Assembly: GCA_004210455.1 (NCBI GenBank)
Contig: SEFA01000020.1
Span: forward strand, 1 to 64,000
Source: Rubrivivax sp.
Lineage (GTDB): Bacteria > Pseudomonadota > Gammaproteobacteria > Burkholderiales > Burkholderiaceae_C
Reading direction: 5' to 3'
DNA: 64,000 nt
In this document: positions 21,834-30,566 of the stretch, one piece after another
How the letters are laid out: each line of letters starts with the position of its first letter
Numbering within the stretch: position 1 is the stretch's first letter
The notes under the pieces: generated by a model
What the model was told of the DNA's origin: nothing
What the model saw: only the letters and a program-made list of their open reading frames with translations
Databases searched by the model: none
Translations under genes and position numbers: made by a program

Positions 21834-23498
21834 TCAACGCACCGCGGCGATGCGGTCCCAGGACAGGCCGAACTTGAGCAGGTATTTCCGCAGCCGGTCC
21901 GCATCGTTGACCACGCTGCGCGCCTGCCGGCTCGCGTTGAACAGCTGGCGTCCGGCCTCCGACAGCGACGACGACGCCGCGCATACGCGCAGCACGGCGG
22001 CGAGCTGCAGCCGGTCGAACAGGTCCATGGTTTCCAGCTCCGGCGGATCGAAGAGCGAGGCCAGCAGGCCGTCGCCGCCCGCGTCGTCATCGCGCGATCT
22101 GCCTGCGCCACCCCTGCTGCCCGCCCTGCCGGGGCGGCCGGACCCGACCGTCTCGCGCTCCCACAGCCAGTCGAGCCGCGCGATTTCCGCCTCGACCAGC
22201 GGCGTGCCGATGCGCCCGCCCTCGGCCAGCGTCACCAGCCGCGTCACCGACGCCGACAGGTCGCGGAAGTTGCCGCTCCACGGCGCGCGCGGCGACTGCG
22301 CGAACGCCAGGTATCGCGCCTTCGCCTCGGCATTGAAGCGCACCGCGCGGCCGTTCTCGCGCCCGACCTGTTGCACCAGGTGATCGACGTTGGGCTCGAT
22401 GTCCTCGGGCCGGTCTCGCAGCCCCGGCAGGCTGTAGGTCCAGAGGTTGATCCGTGCGAAGAGGTCGTCGCGGAAGCGCCCCGCGGCGACCTCGGCACGC
22501 AGGTCGCGGTTGGTGCCGGCTATCAGCTGGAAGTCGCTGGCCACCTCGCGGTCGGCGCCCACGGGCAGGAAGCGCTTCTCCTCGATCGCCTTCAGCAGCA
22601 TGGCCTGCTCGTCCAGGCCCAGCTCGCCGATCTCGTCCAGGAACAGCAGCCCGCCGTCGGCGGTGCGCAGCAGGCCGGCGCGATCCGCCATCGCGCCGGT
22701 GAACGAGCCCTTCTTGTGCCCGAACAGCGTCGACGCCGCCCCGTCGCCGCGCAGCGTGGCGCAGTTGACCTCGACGAAGGCGCCTTGGAGCTGATGTCGC
22801 GTCTGCTTCAGTTCATACATGCGGCGCGCGAGGAAAGACTTGCCCGCGCCCGTGGGCCCGGCCAGCAGCAGGGGCGCGCGGGAATGCACGGCCACGCGCT
22901 CGATCTCCTCGATCAGCGCGTTGAAGCGGCGGTTGCGCGTCGCGATGCCGCTCTTCAGGAAGGCGACGGCGTCGTGCTGTTCCGCCTCGAAGCGCTGCGC
23001 GATGCGGTCGTAGCGCGACAGGTCCAGGTCGATCAGCGTCATGGAGCCCGGCTCGCCCTCCCGCTGCCGGCGCGGCGGCGAGGTCTGCAGCAGCACGCCC
23101 GGAATGAAGCGCGCCTCCACCATCAGGAACATGCAGATCTGCGCGACGTGCGTGCCGGTGGTGATGTGGGCCCAGTACTGCTCGTGCGCGGGGTCGAAGC
23201 GGTAGCCGCGCACCCAGTCGTAGAGCGTGGCGTAGACCTCGCCGAAGTCCCAGGGGTCCTCGTGCGGCATCGCGATGAGCTGGACCTCGGTCTCCGGCGA
23301 AACCTTGGCGATGTCGGACCGCAACAGCTCCGCGAGGGTCAGGTGTTGCGGCGCATGGAAAAGCTCCAGCCGGTGCACGACCACGTCCGGCTGCGACACC
23401 AGCGAGATCGTCGGCCGCCACTTCTCCCACCGGCCGGCACCCTGCCCGCCGTCCAGCTGCGAGCCCAGATAGCCGATCACCACGTTCTTCTTCGCCAT
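21834..23498 (-). CDS. rtcR: RtcR, sigma-54-dependent activator of RNA repair
   Basis: 554 residues. The N-terminal CARF-like regulatory domain ([18 protein letters not shown], to ~185) keeps the AAA+ motor inactive until an RNA-damage ligand binds. The AAA+ domain shows Walker A GPTGAGKS, the sigma-54 contact loop GSFTGA (variant of GAFTGA) and Walker [14 protein letters not shown]. The C-terminal part carries the Fis-like DNA-binding helices ([17 protein letters not shown]). The frame is open to 23603, but the conserved start is at 23498. It is divergent from rsr, in front of which lies a near-perfect sigma-54 promoter; this is the classical arrangement of RtcR with its target operon. Confidence 0.95.
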
Positions 23499-23603
23499 GC
23501 GCCGCAGTTTATCCGAGCGGTGCGTGCCATCTAGCTTTTCAACTAATCGGCTAGCCAGAAATCCAATCCTCGGCCACACGGCGGATGAATGGCGGACTCT
23601 CAA

Positions 23604-23637
23604 ATTCTGCTTAAAACAGAATTAATTCATTTTGAAT
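23604..23637. promoter_or_regulatory. Candidate RtcR upstream activating sites
   Basis: Two adjacent inverted repeats in the most A+T-rich stretch of the region: ATTCTG-N7-CAGAAT (23604-23622) and ATTCA-N3-TGAAT (23625-23637). Their centres are about 90 and 75 bases before the predicted sigma-54 transcription start, the usual enhancer distance for AAA+ activators. Assignment to RtcR is inference from position. Confidence 0.5.
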
Positions 23638-23677
23638 CAATGAGTTAGATCATCCTGAGGCAAGACCTGACACAGGC

Positions 23678-23693
23678 TGGCATGGGCGTTGCA
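23678..23693 (+). promoter_or_regulatory. Sigma-54 promoter of the rsr-rtcBA operon
   Basis: TGGCATG-N4-TTGCA matches the -24/-12 consensus TGGCACG-N4-TTGCW, with GG at 23679-23680 and GC at 23691-23692. Transcription would start near 23704. It removes the possible start codon at 23682, which lies inside the promoter. Confidence 0.85.
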
Positions 23694-23735
23694 ATGATGA
23701 AGGCAGACAACATGACGACAGGACGCGAGGACCAC

Positions 23736-25334
23736 ATGGTCAACACGCAACTCTTCAAGACGACGCCCGGCAAGCTGGCGCCGGCCGCGGACGCGGTGAA
23801 CCAGTCCGGCGCCCGTGCCTATGGCTACAAGACCCGGCACCGTCTGGCACAACTGGCAACCACCGGCTGCATGACGCCGACGTACTACGCCGGCGCTCAA
23901 TCCCAGCTGGAGGACGCGCTGGCACTGGCCCAGGACGTGGACACCGCCTTCCTGGCCAAGACCGCGGTCTATGCCCGCCAGGCCGGCCAGATGAAGGACA
24001 TGCCGGCACTGCTGGCCGCCGTGCTGGCGCAACGCGACATCGCGCTGCTGCAGCCCGTGTTCGGCCGCGTCGTCGACAACGGCAAGATGCTGCGCAACTT
24101 CGTGCAGATCCTGCGATCGGGCCAGACCGGCCGCAAGTCGCTGGGATCGCGTCCGAAGAAGCTGGTCCAGCAATGGCTGGTGAACGCGAGCGAACAGCGC
24201 CTGCTGCAGGCGTCCATCGGCAACGAGCCGACGCTCGCCGACGTGGTCCGCATGGTCCACCCGAAGCCGGCGGAAGCCTGGCGGGCGGCGTGGTTCGCAT
24301 GGCTGATCGGCCGTCCGTACGACGAAGCGGCGCTGCCGCCCGCGACCCAGGCCTATGAGCGCTTCAAGCGGGCGCTGCTGTCCGGCGGGACGGAAGGCGC
24401 GACGGCGGACGATCTGCCGCCCGTGCCCTTCCAGATGCTGACGGCGCTGCCGCTGAACGAGTCGCACTGGGCGCGCATCGCGGCGCAGGGCTCTTGGCAG
24501 ATGGTGCGTCAGAACCTGAACGCCTTCGCACGCCATGGCGTGTTCGAGCGTCCGGGGATGACGGCGCAACTGGCCGCGCTGCTGCGCGATCCGAAGGCCG
24601 TGGCCTCGGCCCGCGTGCTGCCGTACCAGCTGATGACGGCGTTCACCGCGACGTCCGAGGCGGCATCCGAGGTGCCGGCGGAGATCCGCGAGGCGCTGCA
24701 GGACGCGATGGAGGCGGCGCTGGCCAACGTGCCGGCGATCGAAGGCCGTGTCGTGGTCTGCCCGGACGTGTCGGGATCGATGTCCTCGGCGGTGACCGGC
24801 GGGCGCGGCTCGGCGACTTCGGTGGTGCGATGCATCGACGTGGCCGCCCTGGTGGCCGCGGCGCTGGTCCGCAAGAACCCGGGCTGCCGAGTGATGCCGT
24901 TCGAGCAGCAGGTCGTGCCGGTCAAGCTGAATCCGCGCGATTCGGTGATGACCAACGCGGCGAAGCTGGCGGCGGTCGGCGGTGGCGGGACCTCGGTCAG
25001 CGCGCCGCTGCGTCGGCTCAACGAGGAACGCGCGGAAGTCGACCTGGTCGTGATCGTGTCCGACAACGAGTCGTGGATCGACGCGCGTCGTCATGGCGCG
25101 ACCGAGACCATGGCTCAGTGGGAAGCGATCAAGGCCCGGTGCCCGACGGCGAAGCTGGTGTGCATCGACATCCAGCCCGGCGCCTCGACGCAGGCGGTGG
25201 AGCGCAAGGACGTGATGAACGTCGGCGGCTTCTCGGATGCGGTGTTCCGCATGGTCGGCGACTTCGCCGCCGGCGCGACCGAGGTGGGCCATTGGGTCCG
25301 CGAGATCGAGCGCGTGTCGCTGGATCCGCAGTGA
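23736..25334 (+). CDS. rsr: Ro60/TROVE-domain RNA-binding protein (Rsr)
   Basis: 532 residues from ATG 23736. That start is preceded by GAGG and begins MVNTQLFKTTPG; earlier in-frame ATGs (23682-23712) fall in or next to the sigma-54 promoter. The TROVE ring of helical repeats occupies about residues 10-340. It is followed by a von Willebrand factor A domain with the metal site CPDVSGSMSS and later VVIVSDNES. Ro60 binds the ends of misfolded or damaged RNA in its central hole and is held to partners by Y RNAs. Two such RNAs lie directly downstream, before rtcB. The gene fits the known rsr-Y RNA-rtcBA operon. Confidence 0.95.
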   Translation: MVNTQLFKTTPGKLAPAADAVNQSGARAYGYKTRHRLAQLATTGCMTPTYYAGAQSQLEDALALAQDVDTAFLAKTAVYARQAGQMKDMPALLAAVLAQRDIALLQPVFGRVVDNGKMLRNFVQILRSGQTGRKSLGSRPKKLVQQWLVNASEQRLLQASIGNEPTLADVVRMVHPKPAEAWRAAWFAWLIGRPYDEAALPPATQAYERFKRALLSGGTEGATADDLPPVPFQMLTALPLNESHWARIAAQGSWQMVRQNLNAFARHGVFERPGMTAQLAALLRDPKAVASARVLPYQLMTAFTATSEAASEVPAEIREALQDAMEAALANVPAIEGRVVVCPDVSGSMSSAVTGGRGSATSVVRCIDVAALVAAALVRKNPGCRVMPFEQQVVPVKLNPRDSVMTNAAKLAAVGGGGTSVSAPLRRLNEERAEVDLVVIVSDNESWIDARRHGATETMAQWEAIKARCPTAKLVCIDIQPGASTQAVERKDVMNVGGFSDAVFRMVGDFAAGATEVGHWVREIERVSLDPQ

Positions 25335-25370
25335 ATGATTGAATGAAGGCTGTCGACGGCACCGGATGCG

Positions 25371-25527
25371 GTTGCCGCGGCGAGCGATGAATGCAGGTGG
25401 AACTACAGCACTGTTAATGCCCTGGTCGCGGGTTCGAGTCCCGCCGGTCTCCTTCGGGAGTCCGTAGCTCAGCTGGATAGAGCGGGAACACGTTTCACCA
25501 CTCCTTGTCATCGCTCACCGCGGCAAC
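25371..25527 (+). ncRNA. yrlA: Y RNA 1 (YrlA-like) with permuted tRNA-mimic module
   Basis: Ends pair in a 20-bp stem (25371-25390 with 25508-25527, one C-A mismatch at 25381), then an internal loop (ATGCA / ACTCCTTG), then an 8-bp stem (25396-25403 with 25492-25499). The module inside reads as a tRNA cut open between D and anticodon arms. It has an anticodon-like loop CTGTTAA (25411-25417), T arm GCGGG-TTCGAGT-CCCGC (25428-25444), acceptor stem closed by a TTCG tetraloop (25446-25463), T-A at positions 8-9, and D arm GCTC-AGCTGGATA-GAGC (25467-25483). YrlA RNAs are known to tether Ro60 partners through such tRNA-like folds. Confidence 0.88.
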
Positions 25528-25556
25528 TGCCCGGTCGAGGCGCAGCCCCCTGTTTT

Positions 25557-25684
25557 TGCGGTGAATGCTGGCAGGACTACAGGTAGAGCACCCATCCTTT
25601 CGGGGATGCGGACGTCGCAGGTTCAAATCCGGCCCGGCGCAAGCCGGTAGCTCAGAAAACGTCTTGCCGATTCCTGGTCACCGC
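25557..25684 (+). ncRNA. Y RNA 2 (YrlA-like), differently permuted tRNA mimic
   Basis: Outer stem GCGGTGA (25558-25564) with TCACCGC (25678-25684), internal loop, then inner stem 25570-25577 with 25661-25668 (8 bp, one G-U). The enclosed module has its ends inside the D loop. GAGC (25586-25589) pairs with GCTC (25650-25653), a hairpin with UUCG loop replaces the anticodon arm (25593-25608), the T arm is GCAGG-TTCAAAT-CCGGC (25617-25633, one mismatch), and a 5-bp acceptor stem is capped by GCAA (25634-25647). TA at 25648 matches tRNA positions 8-9. The internal-loop sequences closely match those of Y RNA 1, so the two are paralogues. Confidence 0.82.
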
Positions 25685-25704
25685 GCTTTTGAATGGAACG
25701 GATC

Positions 25705-26919
25705 ATGAAGAACTACAACGAGATGGAAGTCGCCGGCGGCGTGCCGGTGAAGATGTGGACGCAGGGGGTGCCCGTCGAAGATGAAGCGCGCAAGCAGCTG
25801 ATGAATGCCGCGAAGCTGCCGGTGGTGTTCAAGCACATCGCGGCGATGCCCGACGTCCACCTGGGCATCGGCGCGACCATCGGCTCGGTGATCCCGACGC
25901 TGAAGGCGATCATCCCGGCCGCGGTCGGCGTCGACATCGGCTGCGGGATGATGGCCTGCAAGACCACGCTGCGCGCGGAAGACCTGCCGGACAACCTGGG
26001 CCCGCTGCGTTCCGCGATCGAGGCCGCCGTGCCGCACGGCCGCAACCCCAAGGGTCGCGACGAAGGCGCATGGGAGAACCCGCCCGACATGGTCGACGCG
26101 GCCTGGGCGACGCTCGAGGCGGACTTCACCGAGCTCTGCCGCGACTACCCGAAGCTGAAGAACACCAACAACCACAAGCACCTGGGCACGCTCGGGACGG
26201 GGAACCACTTCATCGAGGTCTGCCTGGATGAACTGGGCTTCGTGTGGTTCATGCTGCATTCGGGTTCGCGCGGCGTCGGGAACGCGATCGGCACGATGTT
26301 CATCGAGCTGGCGAAGAAGGACGCGATGCAGCATCAGGCCAACCTGCCCGATGCGAACCTGGCGTACTTCGAGGAAGGCGCGAAGTACTTCGGCGACTAC
26401 GTCCGCGCGGTCGGCTGGGCGCAGAAGTTCGCGGAGACCAACCGCGAGGTGATGATGCGTCGCGTGATCGGCGCCGCCAAGAAGGTGATCGGGAAGAAGT
26501 TCGAGAGCCACATCGAGGCGGTGAACTGCCACCATAACTACGTGCAGAAGGAGACCCACTTCGGGCAGGACGTGTTCGTGACCCGCAAGGGCGCCGTCAG
26601 CGCGAAGAAGGGGCAGATGGGGATCATCCCCGGCAGCATGGGTGCGCGCAGCTACATCGTGCGCGGCAAGGGCAACCCGGAGAGCTTCGAGAGCTGCTCG
26701 CACGGGGCCGGCCGCACGATGAGCCGCACGGAGGCCAAGCGCCGCTTCACGCTGAAGGACCAGCGCGCCGCCACCGAGGGCGTCGAGTGCCGCAAGGACG
26801 CCGAAGTCATCGACGAGATCCCGATGGCCTACAAGGACATCGACGCGGTCATGGCGGCCCAGCAGGACCTGGTGGAAGTGGTGCACACGCTCAAGCAGGT
26901 GGTGTGTGTGAAGGGATGA
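25705..26919 (+). CDS. rtcB: RtcB 3'-phosphate RNA ligase
   Basis: 404 residues, close to the 408 of E. coli RtcB. It joins 2',3'-cyclic phosphate or 3'-phosphate RNA ends to 5'-OH ends using GTP and Mn2+. The metal and guanylate sites are visible: MPDVHLGIGATIGSVIP, AAVGVDIGCGMMA (metal Cys), LGTLGTGNHFIEVC, LHSGSRGVGN, CHHNYV and, near the C-terminus, SHGAGRTMSRTEAKR (guanylylated-His neighbourhood). The start at 25705 has GGAACGG upstream, so 25693 is less likely. It begins 21 bases after the base of Y RNA 2, so the RNAs are probably cut from the rsr-rtcB transcript. Confidence 0.96.
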   Translation: MKNYNEMEVAGGVPVKMWTQGVPVEDEARKQLMNAAKLPVVFKHIAAMPDVHLGIGATIGSVIPTLKAIIPAAVGVDIGCGMMACKTTLRAEDLPDNLGPLRSAIEAAVPHGRNPKGRDEGAWENPPDMVDAAWATLEADFTELCRDYPKLKNTNNHKHLGTLGTGNHFIEVCLDELGFVWFMLHSGSRGVGNAIGTMFIELAKKDAMQHQANLPDANLAYFEEGAKYFGDYVRAVGWAQKFAETNREVMMRRVIGAAKKVIGKKFESHIEAVNCHHNYVQKETHFGQDVFVTRKGAVSAKKGQMGIIPGSMGARSYIVRGKGNPESFESCSHGAGRTMSRTEAKRRFTLKDQRAATEGVECRKDAEVIDEIPMAYKDIDAVMAAQQDLVEVVHTLKQVVCVKG

Positions 26920-26935
26920 GGGATGGGAGAAGAAG

Positions 26936-28312
26936 ATGAACTGGAAGGATTGGTTCGAGAGGCTCAGGGAAGAACCCGCCTCGACGTGGGACGCTCACGC
27001 ATGGATGGCACATCTCGATGCGCCGAGCGGCTTCGAGCGCGAGGAGGCGGCCCGCAACCTGGCACGCCTGCGGGCGCCGGAAGCGTTGCCCGGTTTGCTG
27101 GTGCGCCTCAACGACTGGGTCCCGGCGGTGCGCGCCGCGGCGCGGGAAGCGGTCGGCCTCTATCTGACTGACGAGCTGCTGCCCGCGTGGCCGGCCGCGC
27201 TTCCTGCGATGGTCCATCTGCTACGTGGCAAGCGGGATGACCACTGGCCGATGCTGTCGGCGATCGGCGGCTTTCTCGGCCAGCCCGCCCGCGCGGGCGT
27301 GTTCGTCGGCGCGCAGGCGCCCACGGACCCGGCGGTGCGCCGCTGGCTGGTCGGCATCGAATGGCACGCGACCGGCGAAGCCGCGCGTGCCGCCATGCTG
27401 ACGGCCCGTATGGGCAGCGCCGACATCGTCGACGCCCTGTGGGCGCTTCGCCAGGTGGATCAACTCGGCAGCGCAGCGGCACGTCCGGCGCTGTGGCTGA
27501 ACGCCTGCGAGAACCCGCATGGCATCGTTCGGGCGCAAGCGCTGAGGCGACTCTGCGCCGAGGCGCCCGAGATCGGCGCGGCCACTGCGGTCCGGATGGC
27601 GCTCGACGCCACGACCGGCGTGCGCGACGTCGCGATCGCGCAGCTGCGCAAGTCCGGCGGCATCGACGACGTGCGCGCGACCGCGGAGGCGCTGCTGCGG
27701 ACGCCGTCGCAGGCACCGCGCGGCGGCGCTCCGGCGCTGCTGTTCCTCGCCGCCGTCGATCCCGCGGGAAGAAGCGCCCGCGCCGAGGCACTGATGGCGC
27801 GGGTCGGCGCCGACAAGCCCGTCGCCCGGGTGCGCGCGCTGGCGCTGCAGCATCTGATCGCGACGACGACCGGCGACGCCCAGGACGAGTGGATCCTCAC
27901 CGCCCTGCGCGACGGATCCGCCGTGGTCCAGCGCGTCGCGGTCCACGCGATCGCGAACGGCGCCGGCGCGCCGGGGCCGGGGACGCTGTGGCCGGTGATG
28001 CTGGGACACGGCACACGGGACGCCTTCCTTCGCGGACTGCGGATCCTCCAGCACTGGGGACTGTGGATTCAGCTGGAGTCGCTGCTGACGCTCTTCCAGT
28101 CTCGCAGCCCGGTCGAACGCCGCGACGAACTCGTCTCGGCGCTGCAGCAGTGGTTGCGCTCGACGCGGTCGGGCGTGACGCCGCCGCCGGAGCCTCAGGC
28201 CTCCACGCTGCGCACCTTGTGGGACGCCTGCGAAACGACGATGCCGCCTTCGCTGCGTCATCAGATGGATTTCGAGCTGAACGGCATCGGGCTGCTGCAG
28301 ACGTCGCGGTGA
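26936..28312 (+). CDS. HEAT-like repeat protein between rtcB and rtcA
   Basis: 458 residues with no catalytic motif I recognise. From about residue 30 it is built of paired helices in the HEAT/armadillo style (for example FEREEAARNLARLRAPEALP, VPAVRAAAREAVG, GVRDVAIAQLRKSGGIDD, VVQRVAVHAIANG), with several Trp-rich patches. It starts 16 bases after the rtcB stop behind GGGAGAAG, so it is translated from the repair operon. Such solenoids usually bind proteins or RNA. I infer an adaptor or RNA-holding role in repair, with no direct evidence. It is not part of the basic rtcBA unit of E. coli. Confidence 0.85.
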   Translation: MNWKDWFERLREEPASTWDAHAWMAHLDAPSGFEREEAARNLARLRAPEALPGLLVRLNDWVPAVRAAAREAVGLYLTDELLPAWPAALPAMVHLLRGKRDDHWPMLSAIGGFLGQPARAGVFVGAQAPTDPAVRRWLVGIEWHATGEAARAAMLTARMGSADIVDALWALRQVDQLGSAAARPALWLNACENPHGIVRAQALRRLCAEAPEIGAATAVRMALDATTGVRDVAIAQLRKSGGIDDVRATAEALLRTPSQAPRGGAPALLFLAAVDPAGRSARAEALMARVGADKPVARVRALALQHLIATTTGDAQDEWILTALRDGSAVVQRVAVHAIANGAGAPGPGTLWPVMLGHGTRDAFLRGLRILQHWGLWIQLESLLTLFQSRSPVERRDELVSALQQWLRSTRSGVTPPPEPQASTLRTLWDACETTMPPSLRHQMDFELNGIGLLQTSR

Positions 28313-28384
28313 CGCCGGCGTCGACGACGGTCGATCCGAAGAACTTCGAACAAGACACAAGACAGAAGACCAAGAGAGAAAGGC

Positions 28385-28416
28385 GCGGACCCGCGGCGCA
28401 TCGCCGCGGGGACCGC
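28385..28416 (+). other. Strong hairpin in the spacer before rtcA
   Basis: CCCGCGGCG and CGCCGCGGG pair perfectly around CAT (28390-28410), extended by GCGG/CCGC outside. No T-run follows, so it is more likely an mRNA stability or processing element than a terminator. The 112-base spacer is otherwise without a gene. Confidence 0.55.
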
Positions 28417-28442
28417 GAGAAGAGATGAAGATCAGGGAGAAC

Positions 28443-29495
28443 ATGGTGGAACTGGACGGCTCGCACGGCGAAGGCGGCGGCCAGATCCTGCGAACGGCGT
28501 TGGCGCTCGCGATGTGCACCGGCACGCCGCTGCGCATCGATCGCATCCGCGCGAAGCGCCCCAAGCCGGGTCTGATGCGCCAGCACCTGACCTGCGTGCT
28601 CGCCGCGCAGGAGGTCTGCGGCGCGACGGTGGTCGGGGCGGAACTCGGCTCGCAGGCGCTGGAGTTCCGGCCCGGCCAGGTGCACGCCGGCGACTACCGC
28701 TTCGCGGTCGGTACCGCGGGCAGCTGCACGCTGGTGCTGCAGACCGTGCTGCCGCCGCTGATGCTGGCCGACGCGCCCAGCCGCCTGCACCTGTCCGGCG
28801 GGACGCACAACCCGATGGCGCCGCCCTTCCATTTCCTGCAGCGCAGCTTCGCGCCGCTGATGCGCCGTGCGGGCGCGAAGCTGGACCTGACACTGCGTCG
28901 TCACGGCTTCTACCCCGCCGGCGGCGGCGAGATCGAGGCCGCGATCACGCCGGCCGAAGGCGGCCTGCGCCCGTTCGACCTGCTCGAACGCGGCGAGCCG
29001 CTGGAAGCTTTCGCCGAAGTGCTGGCGCCCGCGCTGCCGCGCGGCGTCGCCGATCGCGAGCTCGAGGCCCTGCAGCATCTGACGGGCTGGGACAGCCACC
29101 AGCTGCGCGTCGGCACGGCGCGCCAGAACGAAGGCCCCGGCAACGCGCTGATGACGACGCTCGCGTACGAGCAGTTGACCGAGGTCTTCATCGCCTTCGG
29201 AGAACGCGGCCTGTCGGCGGAGGACGTGGCGCGCGCGGTCTTCACGGAGATGCGCGCGTACGAACTCTCCGCCGGCGCCGTCGGTCCGCACCTCGCCGAT
29301 CAACTGACGCTGCCGCTGGCGCTGGCGGTGGCAGGTTCCGGCCGACCGGCGGCATACACCTGCACGGAATTGACCGAACACAGCCGCACCAACTTCGGCG
29401 TCATCGAGCGCTTCCTGGACGTGCGTTTCGACTCGCACCTGGAAGTCTCCCGTGCCGGCAACGCCTGGCGCGTGGACGTGCGGCCCGGGTCGTAA
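28443..29495 (+). CDS. rtcA: RtcA RNA 3'-terminal phosphate cyclase
   Basis: 350 residues. It activates RNA 3'-phosphate with ATP and turns it into a 2',3'-cyclic phosphate, the substrate for RtcB. The N-terminus VELDGSHGEGGGQILRTALAL is the family signature, followed by RAKRPKPGLMRQHLT, the GTAGSCTLVLQTVLPPL segment and HGFYPAGGGEIEA. The adenylylated His is that in ELTEHSRTNFGVIERFL. The ATG at 28443 has AGGGAG upstream and fits homologue length; the ATG at 28425 is a weaker alternative. Last gene of the repair operon; the next gene begins 93 bases on. Confidence 0.95.
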   Translation: MVELDGSHGEGGGQILRTALALAMCTGTPLRIDRIRAKRPKPGLMRQHLTCVLAAQEVCGATVVGAELGSQALEFRPGQVHAGDYRFAVGTAGSCTLVLQTVLPPLMLADAPSRLHLSGGTHNPMAPPFHFLQRSFAPLMRRAGAKLDLTLRRHGFYPAGGGEIEAAITPAEGGLRPFDLLERGEPLEAFAEVLAPALPRGVADRELEALQHLTGWDSHQLRVGTARQNEGPGNALMTTLAYEQLTEVFIAFGERGLSAEDVARAVFTEMRAYELSAGAVGPHLADQLTLPLALAVAGSGRPAAYTCTELTEHSRTNFGVIERFLDVRFDSHLEVSRAGNAWRVDVRPGS

Positions 29496-29588
29496 CCACG
29501 ATGAAACGCGGCGCCCGCGCGCCGCGTCACAATCCCGCACCGCGCGCCCATCCGGGCGCGTTCCCATTCCAGAACGTGCACGTCCACC

Positions 29589-30566
29589 ATGAGCCACGCC
29601 CTTCCGCTGCAGCAGCACCTCCCGACCGCCAGCCCGCTCGCCTACGGCTGCATGGGCCTGGGCGGCCACTGGGACGACTCGCCGTTCACCGGCGCCCACG
29701 TCGATCACGCGCAGGCCGCCGTCGAGGCCGCGCTGGACATCGGCGTCACGCTGTTCGACCACGCCGACATCTACACCCGCGGCAAGGCCGAATCGGTCTT
29801 CGGCGAACTGTTCCGCCGCCAGCCCTCGCTGCGCGACCGCATCGTGCTGCAGAGCAAGTGCGGCATCCGCTTCGCCGACGATGAAGGCCCGGGCCGCTAC
29901 GACCTGTCCGGCGATTACATCGTCCAGGCGGTCGAAGCCAGCTTGAAGCGCCTGGGCACCGAGCGCCTGGACATCCTGCTGCTGCATCGGCCGGATCCGC
30001 TGATGCAGCCGGCCGAGATCGCCGAAGCCTTCCAGCGCCTGCGCGCGGCGGGCAAGGTGAGCCATTTCGGCGTGTCCAACATGAACGTCGGCCAGATGGC
30101 CTGGCTGGGGCGGGCGCTGGACCAGCCGCTGGTGGTGAACCAGCTGGAACTCGGTCTCGGCCATCTGGAGCCGCTGGACGCGGGCACCTGCTTCAACGAC
30201 CGCCAGGCCGCGGCACGCCCCGGCGCGCTGGCGTGGACCGGCACGCTCGAACATTGCCAGCAGCACGGCATCCAGCTGCAGGCCTGGGCCGCGCTGGCCC
30301 GTGGCCGCTTCAGCGGGGAAACCGCCCAGGACCCCGCCGACGAAGCCGCTCGCGTCCTGGTCCAGAAGCTGGCGCAGGAACACGGCGTGAGCACCGAAGG
30401 CATCCTGCTGGCGTGGCTGATGAAGCATCCCGCCCGCATCCAGCCCGTCATCGGCTCGGCCAGCCCCGACCGCATCCGCGCCTGCGGCGATGCGTTGAAG
30501 GTCCAGCTCAGCCGCAACGAGTGGTATGCGCTGTACGTGGCGGCGCGTGGCGCGCCCTTGCCCTGA
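29589..30566 (+). CDS. Aldo/keto reductase, YdhF-like
   Basis: 325-residue NADPH-dependent oxidoreductase with the (beta/alpha)8 barrel of aldo/keto reductases. The catalytic tetrad is visible as Asp and Tyr in FDHADIYTRG, Lys in IVLQSKCGIRF and His in ILLLHRPDPLM. The cofactor-binding end contains ILLAWLMKHPARIQPVIGSASPDRI, split by the usual helix. Best resemblance is to the E. coli YdhF group, whose natural substrate is not established. It follows rtcA on the same strand but with a 93-base gap, so membership in the repair operon is doubtful. Confidence 0.88.
   Translation: MSHALPLQQHLPTASPLAYGCMGLGGHWDDSPFTGAHVDHAQAAVEAALDIGVTLFDHADIYTRGKAESVFGELFRRQPSLRDRIVLQSKCGIRFADDEGPGRYDLSGDYIVQAVEASLKRLGTERLDILLLHRPDPLMQPAEIAEAFQRLRAAGKVSHFGVSNMNVGQMAWLGRALDQPLVVNQLELGLGHLEPLDAGTCFNDRQAAARPGALAWTGTLEHCQQHGIQLQAWAALARGRFSGETAQDPADEAARVLVQKLAQEHGVSTEGILLAWLMKHPARIQPVIGSASPDRIRACGDALKVQLSRNEWYALYVAARGAPLP

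What the first reader, a model, noticed from the sequence alone, without database searches (positions are those of the whole stretch)
21834..29495. Complete RNA-repair locus with Ro60, two tRNA-mimic Y RNAs, RtcB, a HEAT protein and RtcA under sigma-54/RtcR
rtcR is divergent from rsr; a sigma-54 promoter (TGGCATG-N4-TTGCA) precedes rsr; two structured RNAs follow rsr; then rtcB, a 458-residue helical-repeat protein and rtcA. The rsr-Y RNA-rtcBA arrangement is known from Salmonella and others, but here both RNAs carry tRNA-like modules and an extra protein is inserted. Order and directions are read from the sequence; joint function is inference from the known system.
Basis: partly seen in the sequence, partly recalled or inferred. 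Interest (0 to 1): 0.85.

Follow-up and report, generated by a model that had tools for sequence, protein, structure and literature searches.

The report
Y RNA with sealed, permuted tRNA
Beside the genes of a bacterial RNA-repair kit lies a second small RNA whose head is a whole transfer RNA cut open and re-joined in a new order, with both working ends capped, a layout that recurs in dozens of related bacteria and suggests a purpose-built tRNA dummy held by the Ro60 protein.

Summary
In detail: rtcR, a sigma-54-like site, rsr (Ro60), two structured RNAs, rtcB, a 458-residue HEAT-type solenoid and rtcA lie at 21834-29495. The operon type is known (Salmonella rsr-yrlBA-rtcBA) and RNA 1 is an ordinary YrlA (73 bits, gathering 69). 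RNA 2 is the real find: a Ro60-type basal stem whose head is a complete cloverleaf circularly permuted in the D loop. In YrlA the basal stem takes the anticodon arm's place. In RNA 2 the anticodon arm ends in a tetraloop and the acceptor ends are joined by GCAA. The class occurs in 37 of 80 named rsr loci plus the window, each time as the 3'-most Y RNA. In these 38, 96.8% of pair cells form, 31 of 41 pairs changed on both sides, 0 of 500 shuffles equal; the tertiary 15-48 pair, not in the model, covaries in 38 of 38. Rfam's YrlA model does not reach it. The HEAT gene is an allele-swapped neighbour of rtcB; RlaP sits in that slot in 32 of 67 named loci. Function (uncleavable tRNA-body bait or adaptor on Ro60) is inference.

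The parts
21834..23498 (-). rtcR, CARF-AAA+-HTH activator of sigma-54 RNA polymerase
   Evidence: NCBIfam NF038308 807.4 bits, cut-off 650; PADLOC RtcR--CARF_AAA_HTH 841 bits
23678..23693 (+). sigma-54-like promoter TGGCATG-GGCG-TTGCA
   Evidence: loose pattern in 64 of 71 rtcR-rsr regions
23712..25334 (+). rsr (Ro60 orthologue); likely start ATG 23736
   Evidence: Pfam vWA_Ro60 71.3 bits over cut-off 27.7, TROVE 21.5 below cut-off 23; 64-71% identity to 8 relatives
25384..25517 (+). RNA 1, YrlA: basal stem with T arm, closed acceptor stem and D hairpin
   Evidence: Rfam RF02553 73 bits, gathering 69
25558..25687 (+). RNA 2, class P: Ro60-type basal stem carrying a D-loop-permuted, sealed tRNA
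25558..25577 (+). RNA 2 basal stem, 5' strands (outer 25558-25564, GAATGC box, inner 25570-25577)
   Evidence: pairs with 25661-25668 (inner) and 25678-25684 (outer)
25582..25589 (+). RNA 2 D-arm 3' half: GG (G18 G19), TA, GAGC
   Evidence: D helix 99.1% of cells paired in 37 distinct sequences, 100% in 24
25591..25611 (+). RNA 2 anticodon-like arm capped by a UUCG tetraloop, no anticodon loop
25617..25633 (+). RNA 2 T arm, loop TTCAAAT; base 48 = C25616
25634..25647 (+). RNA 2 acceptor stem CCGGC/GCCGG closed by GCAA
25648..25655 (+). RNA 2 U8, A9, D-arm 5' half GCTC, A14, G15
25693..26919 (+). rtcB RNA ligase; possible start ATG 25708
   Evidence: Pfam RtcB 431 bits
26936..28312 (+). 458-aa HEAT-type alpha-solenoid accessory protein
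   Evidence: HEAT_2 23.0 bits, below Pfam cut-off 27.7; AlphaFold2 mean pLDDT 89.2, pTM 0.75, all helical; listed PDB matches are mostly alphaRep, importin, adaptin and PP2A-type helical-repeat proteins
28425..29495 (+). rtcA RNA 3'-phosphate cyclase
   Evidence: NCBIfam NF003246 422.7 bits, cut-off 352

Best explanation
This is an RtcR-activated, sigma-54-dependent RNA-repair operon. Its second RNA, 25558-25687, belongs to a distinct class of bacterial Y RNA, called P here. Shown by sequence and covariation: a Ro60-type basal stem enters a complete tRNA body through the D loop. The tRNA is circularly permuted there and sealed at both working ends: the acceptor stem is closed by a short loop and the anticodon arm ends in a short, mostly 4-nt, loop. 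The residues that hold a tRNA in its L shape are kept. Inferred: damage that leaves tRNA halves with 2',3'-cyclic phosphate activates RtcR; the operon is transcribed and the RNAs are cut out and bound by Rsr. YrlA and P then offer tRNA-like heads in two orientations. P cannot be charged and lacks a normal anticodon loop to read or to be cut. So it serves as an indestructible tRNA-body handle that docks a tRNA-handling enzyme (RtcB/RtcA, PNPase or a modification enzyme) onto the Ro60 ring, where broken tRNAs are sorted for repair or decay. The HEAT protein is probably an interchangeable scaffold or specificity subunit of RtcB, in the slot that RlaP fills elsewhere.
For: Operon and families. RNA 2 folds as the permuted cloverleaf and fails the YrlA model, which places the basal stem and acceptor hairpin and drops the D hairpin (24 bits against 69). 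A model built from 9 family sequences finds 38 class members in 81 sources: 37 of 80 named loci plus the window. In all 38 the class member is the 3'-most Y RNA (table; one 13.4-bit match further downstream in L111 lies inside rtcA). Covariation: 96.8% of cells paired, 31 of 41 pairs changed on both sides, 0 of 500 shuffles equal, slid controls 36-51%. An alignment made without the model gives 97.6%, 0 of 500, D helix 100%. The 15-48 tertiary pair, absent from the model, is complementary in 38 of 38 (33 G-C, 4 A-U, 1 U-A). U8, A14, G18, G19 and T54 are invariant in 38 of 38; C56 37, A58 36. Put back in tRNA order, heads align better to real tRNAs than in native order in 38 of 38; ARAGORN accepts 10 of 38 rotated, 0 of 38 unrotated heads, 0 of 190 shuffles. 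Anticodon-arm loops are 4 nt in 30 of 38. Activation by tRNA halves is shown in Salmonella (PMC7790460, passages).
Against: No expression, processing or binding data. The window RNA alone is not significantly more stable than shuffles (z -1.35, 18 of 200) and its T stem has one A-G mismatch. T55 is C in 11 of 38, so a pseudouridine-55 contact is not general. Unrotated heads also beat their best shuffle in 26 of 38, because the T arm alone resembles tRNA. ARAGORN read an anticodon in 2 of the 10 rotated heads it accepted (L050, L097). A class sample of 369 genomes (strict filters, few candidates scored) and 15 rsr loci of family f14 gave no match above 52.5 bits apart from the window, so P is not a general Ro60 partner. 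L042, a near relative with the same operon, has no P RNA. The docking partner and the HEAT role are not constrained by any result here. The Rsr does not reach the NCBIfam Rsr equivalog cut-off (67 of 900).
Confidence: 0.55

Rival explanations
1. P is a decoy or feedback element: its uncleavable tRNA body titrates tRNA-binding nucleases or competes with tRNA halves for the RtcR CARF domain, turning the response down.
For: Short capped anticodon arm and joined acceptor ends; RtcR binds 5' tRNA halves with cyclic phosphate in Salmonella, whose authors suggest the YrlA head might competitively inhibit the nuclease (PMC7790460 passages).
Against: In Salmonella RtcR oligomerises on halves with a cyclic-phosphate end and much less on 3'-phosphate ends; the P head has no such end. 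A decoy would not need a Ro60 stem.
Confidence: 0.2
2. P acts in cis as a structured leader or processing element of rtcB, not as a Ro60-bound RNA.
For: Each time the 3'-most Y RNA (38 of 38); within 60 nt of the rtcB match start in 23 of 38.
Against: Separated from rtcB by 250-2000 nt in 11 of 38; basal stem has the same boxes as the other Y RNAs and covaries; a leader needs no conserved tRNA tertiary contacts.
Confidence: 0.15
3. RNA 2 is just a diverged YrlA; nothing new in kind.
For: Same basal stem; 24-bit match to YrlA.
Against: The D hairpin that the YrlA model expects is deleted in the alignment; D-stem partners are split to the two ends of the head in 38 sequences with covariation; YrlA and P occur side by side in the same loci.
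Confidence: 0.04
4. RNA 2 is a permuted gene for a working tRNA, matured by cutting and ligation (as in some red algae; recalled).
For: Complete cloverleaf in permuted order; an RNA ligase gene is adjacent; ARAGORN reads an anticodon in 2 of 38 rotated heads.
Against: Predicted anticodon-arm loops are 3-6 nt in 37 of 38, and the one 7-nt loop (L083) looks like an alternative fold; acceptor strands are joined by short loops; ARAGORN finds no tRNA in the window.
Confidence: 0.02

Closest known systems
YrlA (Rfam RF02553), tRNA-mimic Y RNA of Salmonella and others
   Same: Basal Ro60-type stem with GAATGC and ACTAC boxes; T arm, closed acceptor stem and D-arm sequences in the head; same operon.
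   Different: YrlA has an intact D hairpin and the basal stem in place of the anticodon arm. P has the basal stem leaving from a split D loop, an anticodon-like arm, and in many relatives a long variable arm. The window's P scores 24 bits against gathering 69.
Salmonella rsr-yrlB-yrlA-rtcB-rtcA operon under RtcR and sigma-54 (PMC7790460, PMC9879122; passages read)
   Same: rsr, Y RNAs, rtcB, rtcA, divergent rtcR, sigma-54-type promoter.
   Different: YrlA is first and P second here; a HEAT gene lies between rtcB and rtcA; relatives often carry RlaP there and three or more Y RNAs. I did not have the Salmonella YrlB sequence to compare.
tmRNA tRNA-like domain
   Same: A tRNA-like body without an anticodon arm used as a handle (recalled).
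   Different: tmRNA keeps a chargeable acceptor end (recalled); P has both ends sealed.
RlaP (PF10127), RNA-ligase-associated polymerase-beta family
   Same: Occupies the rtcB-rtcA slot in 32 of 67 named loci.
   Different: Nucleotidyltransferase, unrelated to the HEAT solenoid that sits in the slot in the window.

Membership tests
RtcR-controlled rsr-yrl-rtcBA RNA-repair operon | rtcR divergent from rsr, RtcR full length | tested here: met
   807 bits, cut-off 650
RtcR-controlled rsr-yrl-rtcBA RNA-repair operon | sigma-54 promoter before rsr | tested here: inconclusive
   Sequence match at 23678-23693 and conservation in 64 of 71 (loose) or 53 of 71 (strict) loci; no transcript data
RtcR-controlled rsr-yrl-rtcBA RNA-repair operon | RtcB and RtcA | tested here: met
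   RtcB Pfam 431 bits over 27 (NCBIfam RtcB-family models stay below their own cut-offs); RtcA NCBIfam 422.7 over 352
Ro60/Rsr | Ro60 vWA domain | tested here: met
   71.3 bits, cut-off 27.7
Ro60/Rsr | TROVE domain and NCBIfam Rsr equivalog cut-offs | tested here: not met
   TROVE 21.5 of 23; Rsr equivalog 67 of 900: a diverged Rsr branch
YrlA RF02553 (RNA 1) | Gathering score | tested here: met
   73 against 69
YrlA RF02553 (RNA 2) | Gathering score and D hairpin inside the head | tested here: not met
   24 against 69, D arm deleted in the alignment
Bacterial Y RNA in the wide sense (RNA 2) | Ro60-type basal stem next to rsr | tested here: met
   Basal helices 96-99% paired across 37 distinct sequences
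Bacterial Y RNA in the wide sense (RNA 2) | Binding to Rsr | not testable with these tools
   Needs pull-down or binding assay
tRNA | 7-nt anticodon loop and free 3' CCA end | tested here: not met
   UUCG and GCAA caps in the window RNA; ARAGORN 0 in window
tRNA-like tertiary fold (works like, not member) | U8-A14, 15-48, G18/G19 with T loop | tested here: met
   Invariant residues and 15-48 covariation; no three-dimensional structure
HEAT_2 (PF13646) | Pfam cut-off | tested here: not met
   23.0 of 27.7; model is an all-helical solenoid

The most novel reading that the evidence does not exclude
A so far undescribed class of Y RNA, in which Ro60 holds a whole tRNA by its D loop with anticodon and acceptor sealed. 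It may have been built more than once from different tRNAs (tRNA-Leu-like with long variable arm, tRNA-Asn-like with short), so that each operon presents tRNA bodies in two opposite orientations as uncleavable bait for tRNA-repair or tRNA-decay enzymes.
Probability: 0.35. Interest if true: 0.8.

Novelty: new variant of a known kind. Interest (0 to 1): 0.62.

Why it matters
It shows that the effector head of bacterial Y RNAs is a design space: the same Ro60-type stem carries YrlA heads, T-arm/acceptor heads, and a complete sealed tRNA attached at a different point. A natural RNA that keeps the tRNA core but lacks the reactive ends is a ready probe for the open question of what the tRNA-like head of a Y RNA recruits in a tRNA-damage response. 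It also gives a covariance model with which Y RNAs that Rfam's YrlA threshold misses can be found.

Tried and rejected
Single-sequence folding statistics were too weak to decide (z -1.81, -1.35). A first regular-expression classifier confused Y RNA classes and was dropped. A second looked at 109 of the 260 matches, chosen by me; it labelled 34 of the 38 P sequences P, 3 noT, 1 T, and some of its D-stem picks were wrong. The class is therefore defined by model score (62.3 bits or more) and checked on the alignments. Two P-like but degenerate heads (L060 9095-9226, 29.7 bits; L112 9065-9179, 40.4 bits) and a chimera (L058 8744-8850, 58 bits) were left out of the count. A sequence-only explanation of RNA 2 as diverged YrlA was rejected.

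P outside Burkholderiales: a class-wide sample of 369 genomes gave the window and three others at 40-52 bits, and 15 rsr loci of family f14 gave nothing above 52.5 bits. Some f14 heads (L173 3644, L183 3613, L184 3713, L185 3388) have GG, a hairpin, a T arm and a further hairpin without a D stem; a link to P is only a guess. No correlation of P with HEAT: among 7 loci with HEAT (window included), P is present in 3 (window, L041, L050) and absent in 4 (L042, L048, L049, L053).

Fold search of the HEAT model gave only helical-repeat or scaffold-type proteins in the 50 rows shown. PADLOC gave only RtcR models and one weak mad8 match, all to RtcR. Chen 2014, Wang 2018, Sim 2018 and Sim 2020 are not held (the identifiers sent were mis-recalled). 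Burroughs 2016 was not found under two identifiers sent from memory nor in the listing. So prior description of P cannot be ruled out. No paper listed or 98 visibly pairs a permuted tRNA with a Y RNA, judged from listings and term counts only; two phage papers hold 'circularly permuted' together with Ro60 and Y RNA, and I did not read them for that phrase.
Full report
What is there. The window holds a compact operon of the RtcR-controlled RNA-repair type. rtcR (23498-21834, minus strand) is a full-length RtcR (807 bits, cut-off 650). Between it and rsr lies TGGCATGGGCGTTGCA at 23678-23693, the only match to the pattern in 64 kb; 0.56 would be expected by chance at up to one mismatch, so the site is convincing through position and conservation: a loose pattern is present in 64 of 71 rtcR-rsr regions and a strict one in 53 of 71 (no shuffled control for these). 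rsr, two RNAs, rtcB, a 458-aa HEAT-type protein and rtcA follow on the plus strand. There is no plus-strand terminator-like site and no sigma-70-like site in 23400-29700, which fits one transcript but does not prove it. The nearest named relatives by Rsr are Roseateles noduli (L041, 90%; Burkholderiales) and Mitsuaria chitosanitabida (L042, 86%) (the window's own record may be left out of that list).

RNA 1 is known. 25384-25517 matches Rfam YrlA at 73 bits, gathering 69: basal stem, T arm, closed acceptor stem, D hairpin.

RNA 2 is not a YrlA. 25558-25687 scores only 24 bits against YrlA, and the alignment drops the D hairpin. Its minimum-energy fold is a basal stem followed by these elements: GGTA-GAGC (D arm, 3' half), a hairpin capped by UUCG in the place of the anticodon arm, the T arm with loop TTCAAAT, the acceptor stem CCGGC-GCAA-GCCGG, then TA-GCTC-AG (D arm, 5' half), and back into the basal stem. 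This is a whole cloverleaf circularly permuted inside the D loop, with the acceptor ends sealed and no anticodon. In YrlA the basal stem replaces the anticodon arm; here it replaces part of the D loop. Energy alone is not impressive (z -1.35; 18 of 200 shuffles as stable), so I tested it by comparison.

Comparative evidence. 18 of 200 family genomes, the window's among them, carry Rsr. The rsr-rtcB gaps of the 17 relatives hold Y RNAs in tandem. Nine P-type sequences, the window among them, were aligned and made into a covariance model. A scan with conserved Rsr peptides over the GTDB species collection gave 336 relatives, of which the best 80 were kept. The model run over these 80 loci plus the window (81 sources) gave 260 matches at E up to 1, because the shared basal stem rings for other Y RNAs too. 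The 38 matches at 62.3 bits or more are the P class: 37 of 80 named loci and the window, one per locus, and in all 38 the 3'-most Y RNA (tables; in L111 a 13.4-bit match further downstream lies inside rtcA). The next match, 61.9 bits, is a YrlA-type RNA.

Pair counts on the 38 (37 distinct): 96.8% of 1351 cells pair, 31 of 41 pairs change on both sides, 248 cells changed on both sides, 0 of 500 shuffles equal on any of five measures, and slid controls drop to 36-51%. Because that alignment is fitted to the model, I repeated the count on a plain MAFFT alignment of 24 members without the long variable arm, including two from other families (L159, L160): 97.6% paired, 18 of 29 pairs changed on both sides, 0 of 500, D helix 100%. 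Related sequences are not independent events, so the shuffle counts are not probabilities.

Tertiary signature. The residues that hold a tRNA in its L shape are kept: U8, A14, G18, G19 and T54 in 38 of 38, C56 in 37, A58 in 36. The tertiary 15-48 pair was not in the model, yet is complementary in 38 of 38: 33 G-C, 4 A-U, 1 U-A. 0 of 500 shuffles reach the paired percentage, the number of doubly changed cells or the covariation score; the other two measures are uninformative for a single pair (191 of 500). Slid partners pair in 0-46%. Against this stands T55, which is C in 11 of 38. The tRNA position numbers and contacts are recalled textbook knowledge.

Put back in tRNA order, heads align better with 37 tRNAs of the window's own genome than in native order in 38 of 38, and better than the best of 20 shuffles in 37 of 38; unrotated heads also beat their best shuffle in 26 of 38, so part of the signal is the T arm alone. 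One spurious ARAGORN prediction was dropped from 38 before this test. The best tRNA was Leu for 15 and Asn for 14 of 38. ARAGORN accepts 10 of 38 rotated heads, 0 of 38 unrotated, 0 of 190 shuffled, and 1 of 38 native units. In 8 of the 10 it could not assign an anticodon; in L050 and L097 it did. The Leu-like members carry a second hairpin where class II tRNAs have a variable arm. The tRNA assignment comes from a crude score against one genome's tRNAs and is only suggestive; the window's own best match was Lys.

Both working ends are sealed. The predicted loop of the anticodon-like arm is 4 nt in 30 of 38, 5 in 4, 3 in 2, 6 in 1 and 7 in 1; the 7-nt case, L083, looks like an alternative fold of a stem shared with its neighbours. 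The acceptor strands are joined by GCAA, GAAA, TTCG and similar short loops.

Distribution. The named P hosts are Burkholderiales by name (my reading of the titles) or metagenome bins labelled only Proteobacteria, Pseudomonadota or beta-proteobacteria. An order sample of 399 genomes gave 13 with any model match at E up to 1e-6; four scored at 71 bits or more (the window and three that repeat named loci), and two further ones (L159 59.2 bits, L160 55.5 bits) have the P layout on inspection. A class sample of 369 genomes gave no P beyond the window, under strict filters. In another family (f14), 16 of 149 genomes match Rsr, one only weakly; the other 15 loci were scanned, none above 52.5 bits. 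Rfam's gathering scan of nine rsr loci found four YrlA and no P, although seven of the nine carry P.

The HEAT protein. It is modelled as an all-helical solenoid (mean pLDDT 89.2) resembling HEAT/ARM scaffolds in general, and misses the Pfam HEAT_2 cut-off (23.0 of 27.7). In 200 family genomes it has 4 matches, the window among them; all 4 directly follow rtcB, one without rsr. In named loci it directly follows rtcB in 6 of 80 (L041, L042, L048, L049, L050, L053). In the order sample 5 of 399 genomes match: the window and three others lie in rtc loci, and one (L213) has none of the other rtc-locus genes searched for within 11 kb. Of the 67 named loci with both rtcB and rtcA, RlaP lies between them in 32, the slot is under 200 nt in 23, HEAT is there in 5 (one of them with RlaP too), and 8 have something else; one RlaP protein was confirmed with Pfam (320 bits). 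Between the window and R. noduli nucleotide identity falls from about 95% to about 65% at the edges of the HEAT gene and recovers after it. Fourfold-degenerate sites agree at 0.48 in HEAT but 0.79-0.86 in rtcR, rsr, rtcB and rtcA. I read that as replacement by a distant allele, not faster amino-acid change alone: an exchangeable part.

How it most likely works. [quoted passage not shown] Bacterial Y RNAs bind Rsr by the basal stem, and the tRNA-like head of YrlA is described as binding PNPase and as a substrate of DusA and TruB (PMC8394870, passages read). By analogy P should be an Rsr-bound RNA whose head docks something that recognises the tRNA body but must not act on its ends. The likeliest partner is one of the enzymes of the response itself (RtcB, RtcA, PNPase) or a tRNA modification enzyme. 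That last step is inference without direct support here.

Verdict. The operon is a known kind. RNA 2 is a well-supported new variant of bacterial Y RNA; I could not read the key survey (Chen et al. 2014), so earlier description cannot be excluded.

Noticed in passing
L049:9099-9329 and L064, L094, L056, L082, L084, L087, L072, L090, L101, L083: A 231-nt RNA-like element at 84-100% identity in 11 of 80 named loci (in L083 without its last 18 nt), between rsr and rtcB, with a 7-bp acceptor-like stem, T arm and ACC end; partial or weak matches in L114, L075, L113; no Rfam family at gathering in L049 or L056, weak beta-tmRNA match. Not found in the window.
   Followed up: partly
L058:8744-8850: A chimeric Y RNA: 5' half of a YrlA head joined to the 3' half of a P head at the shared T-loop sequence, as if by recombination between neighbours.
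   Followed up: no
L160 (genome G596): At least eight Y RNAs in tandem on one strand, with differing heads; the wider locus L217 has rsr upstream and rtcB downstream.
   Followed up: partly
L023-L039, rsr-rtcB gaps: Further Y RNA heads besides YrlA and P: T arm plus acceptor hairpin only, a three-hairpin head, and short heads. In nine named loci scanned only four Y RNAs reached Rfam's YrlA gathering score.
   Followed up: partly
L173 3644-3741, L183 3613-3735, L184 3713-3825, L185 3388-3498: Heads in family f14 with GG, hairpin, T arm and further hairpin but no D stem; possibly remote kin of P.
   Followed up: no
L053 after rtcB: The rtc operon of Hydrogenophaga sp. A37 also holds a treble-clef protein, a metallo-beta-lactamase-fold protein resembling RNase Z (my reading) and RlaP.
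   Followed up: no
window 26936-28312: HEAT gene allele swap: identity to R. noduli drops to about 65% at the gene's edges between flanks of about 95%.
   Followed up: yes
L042 rsr-rtcB gap: Mitsuaria chitosanitabida has the operon with HEAT and YrlA plus a short Y-like RNA first, but no P RNA.
   Followed up: partly
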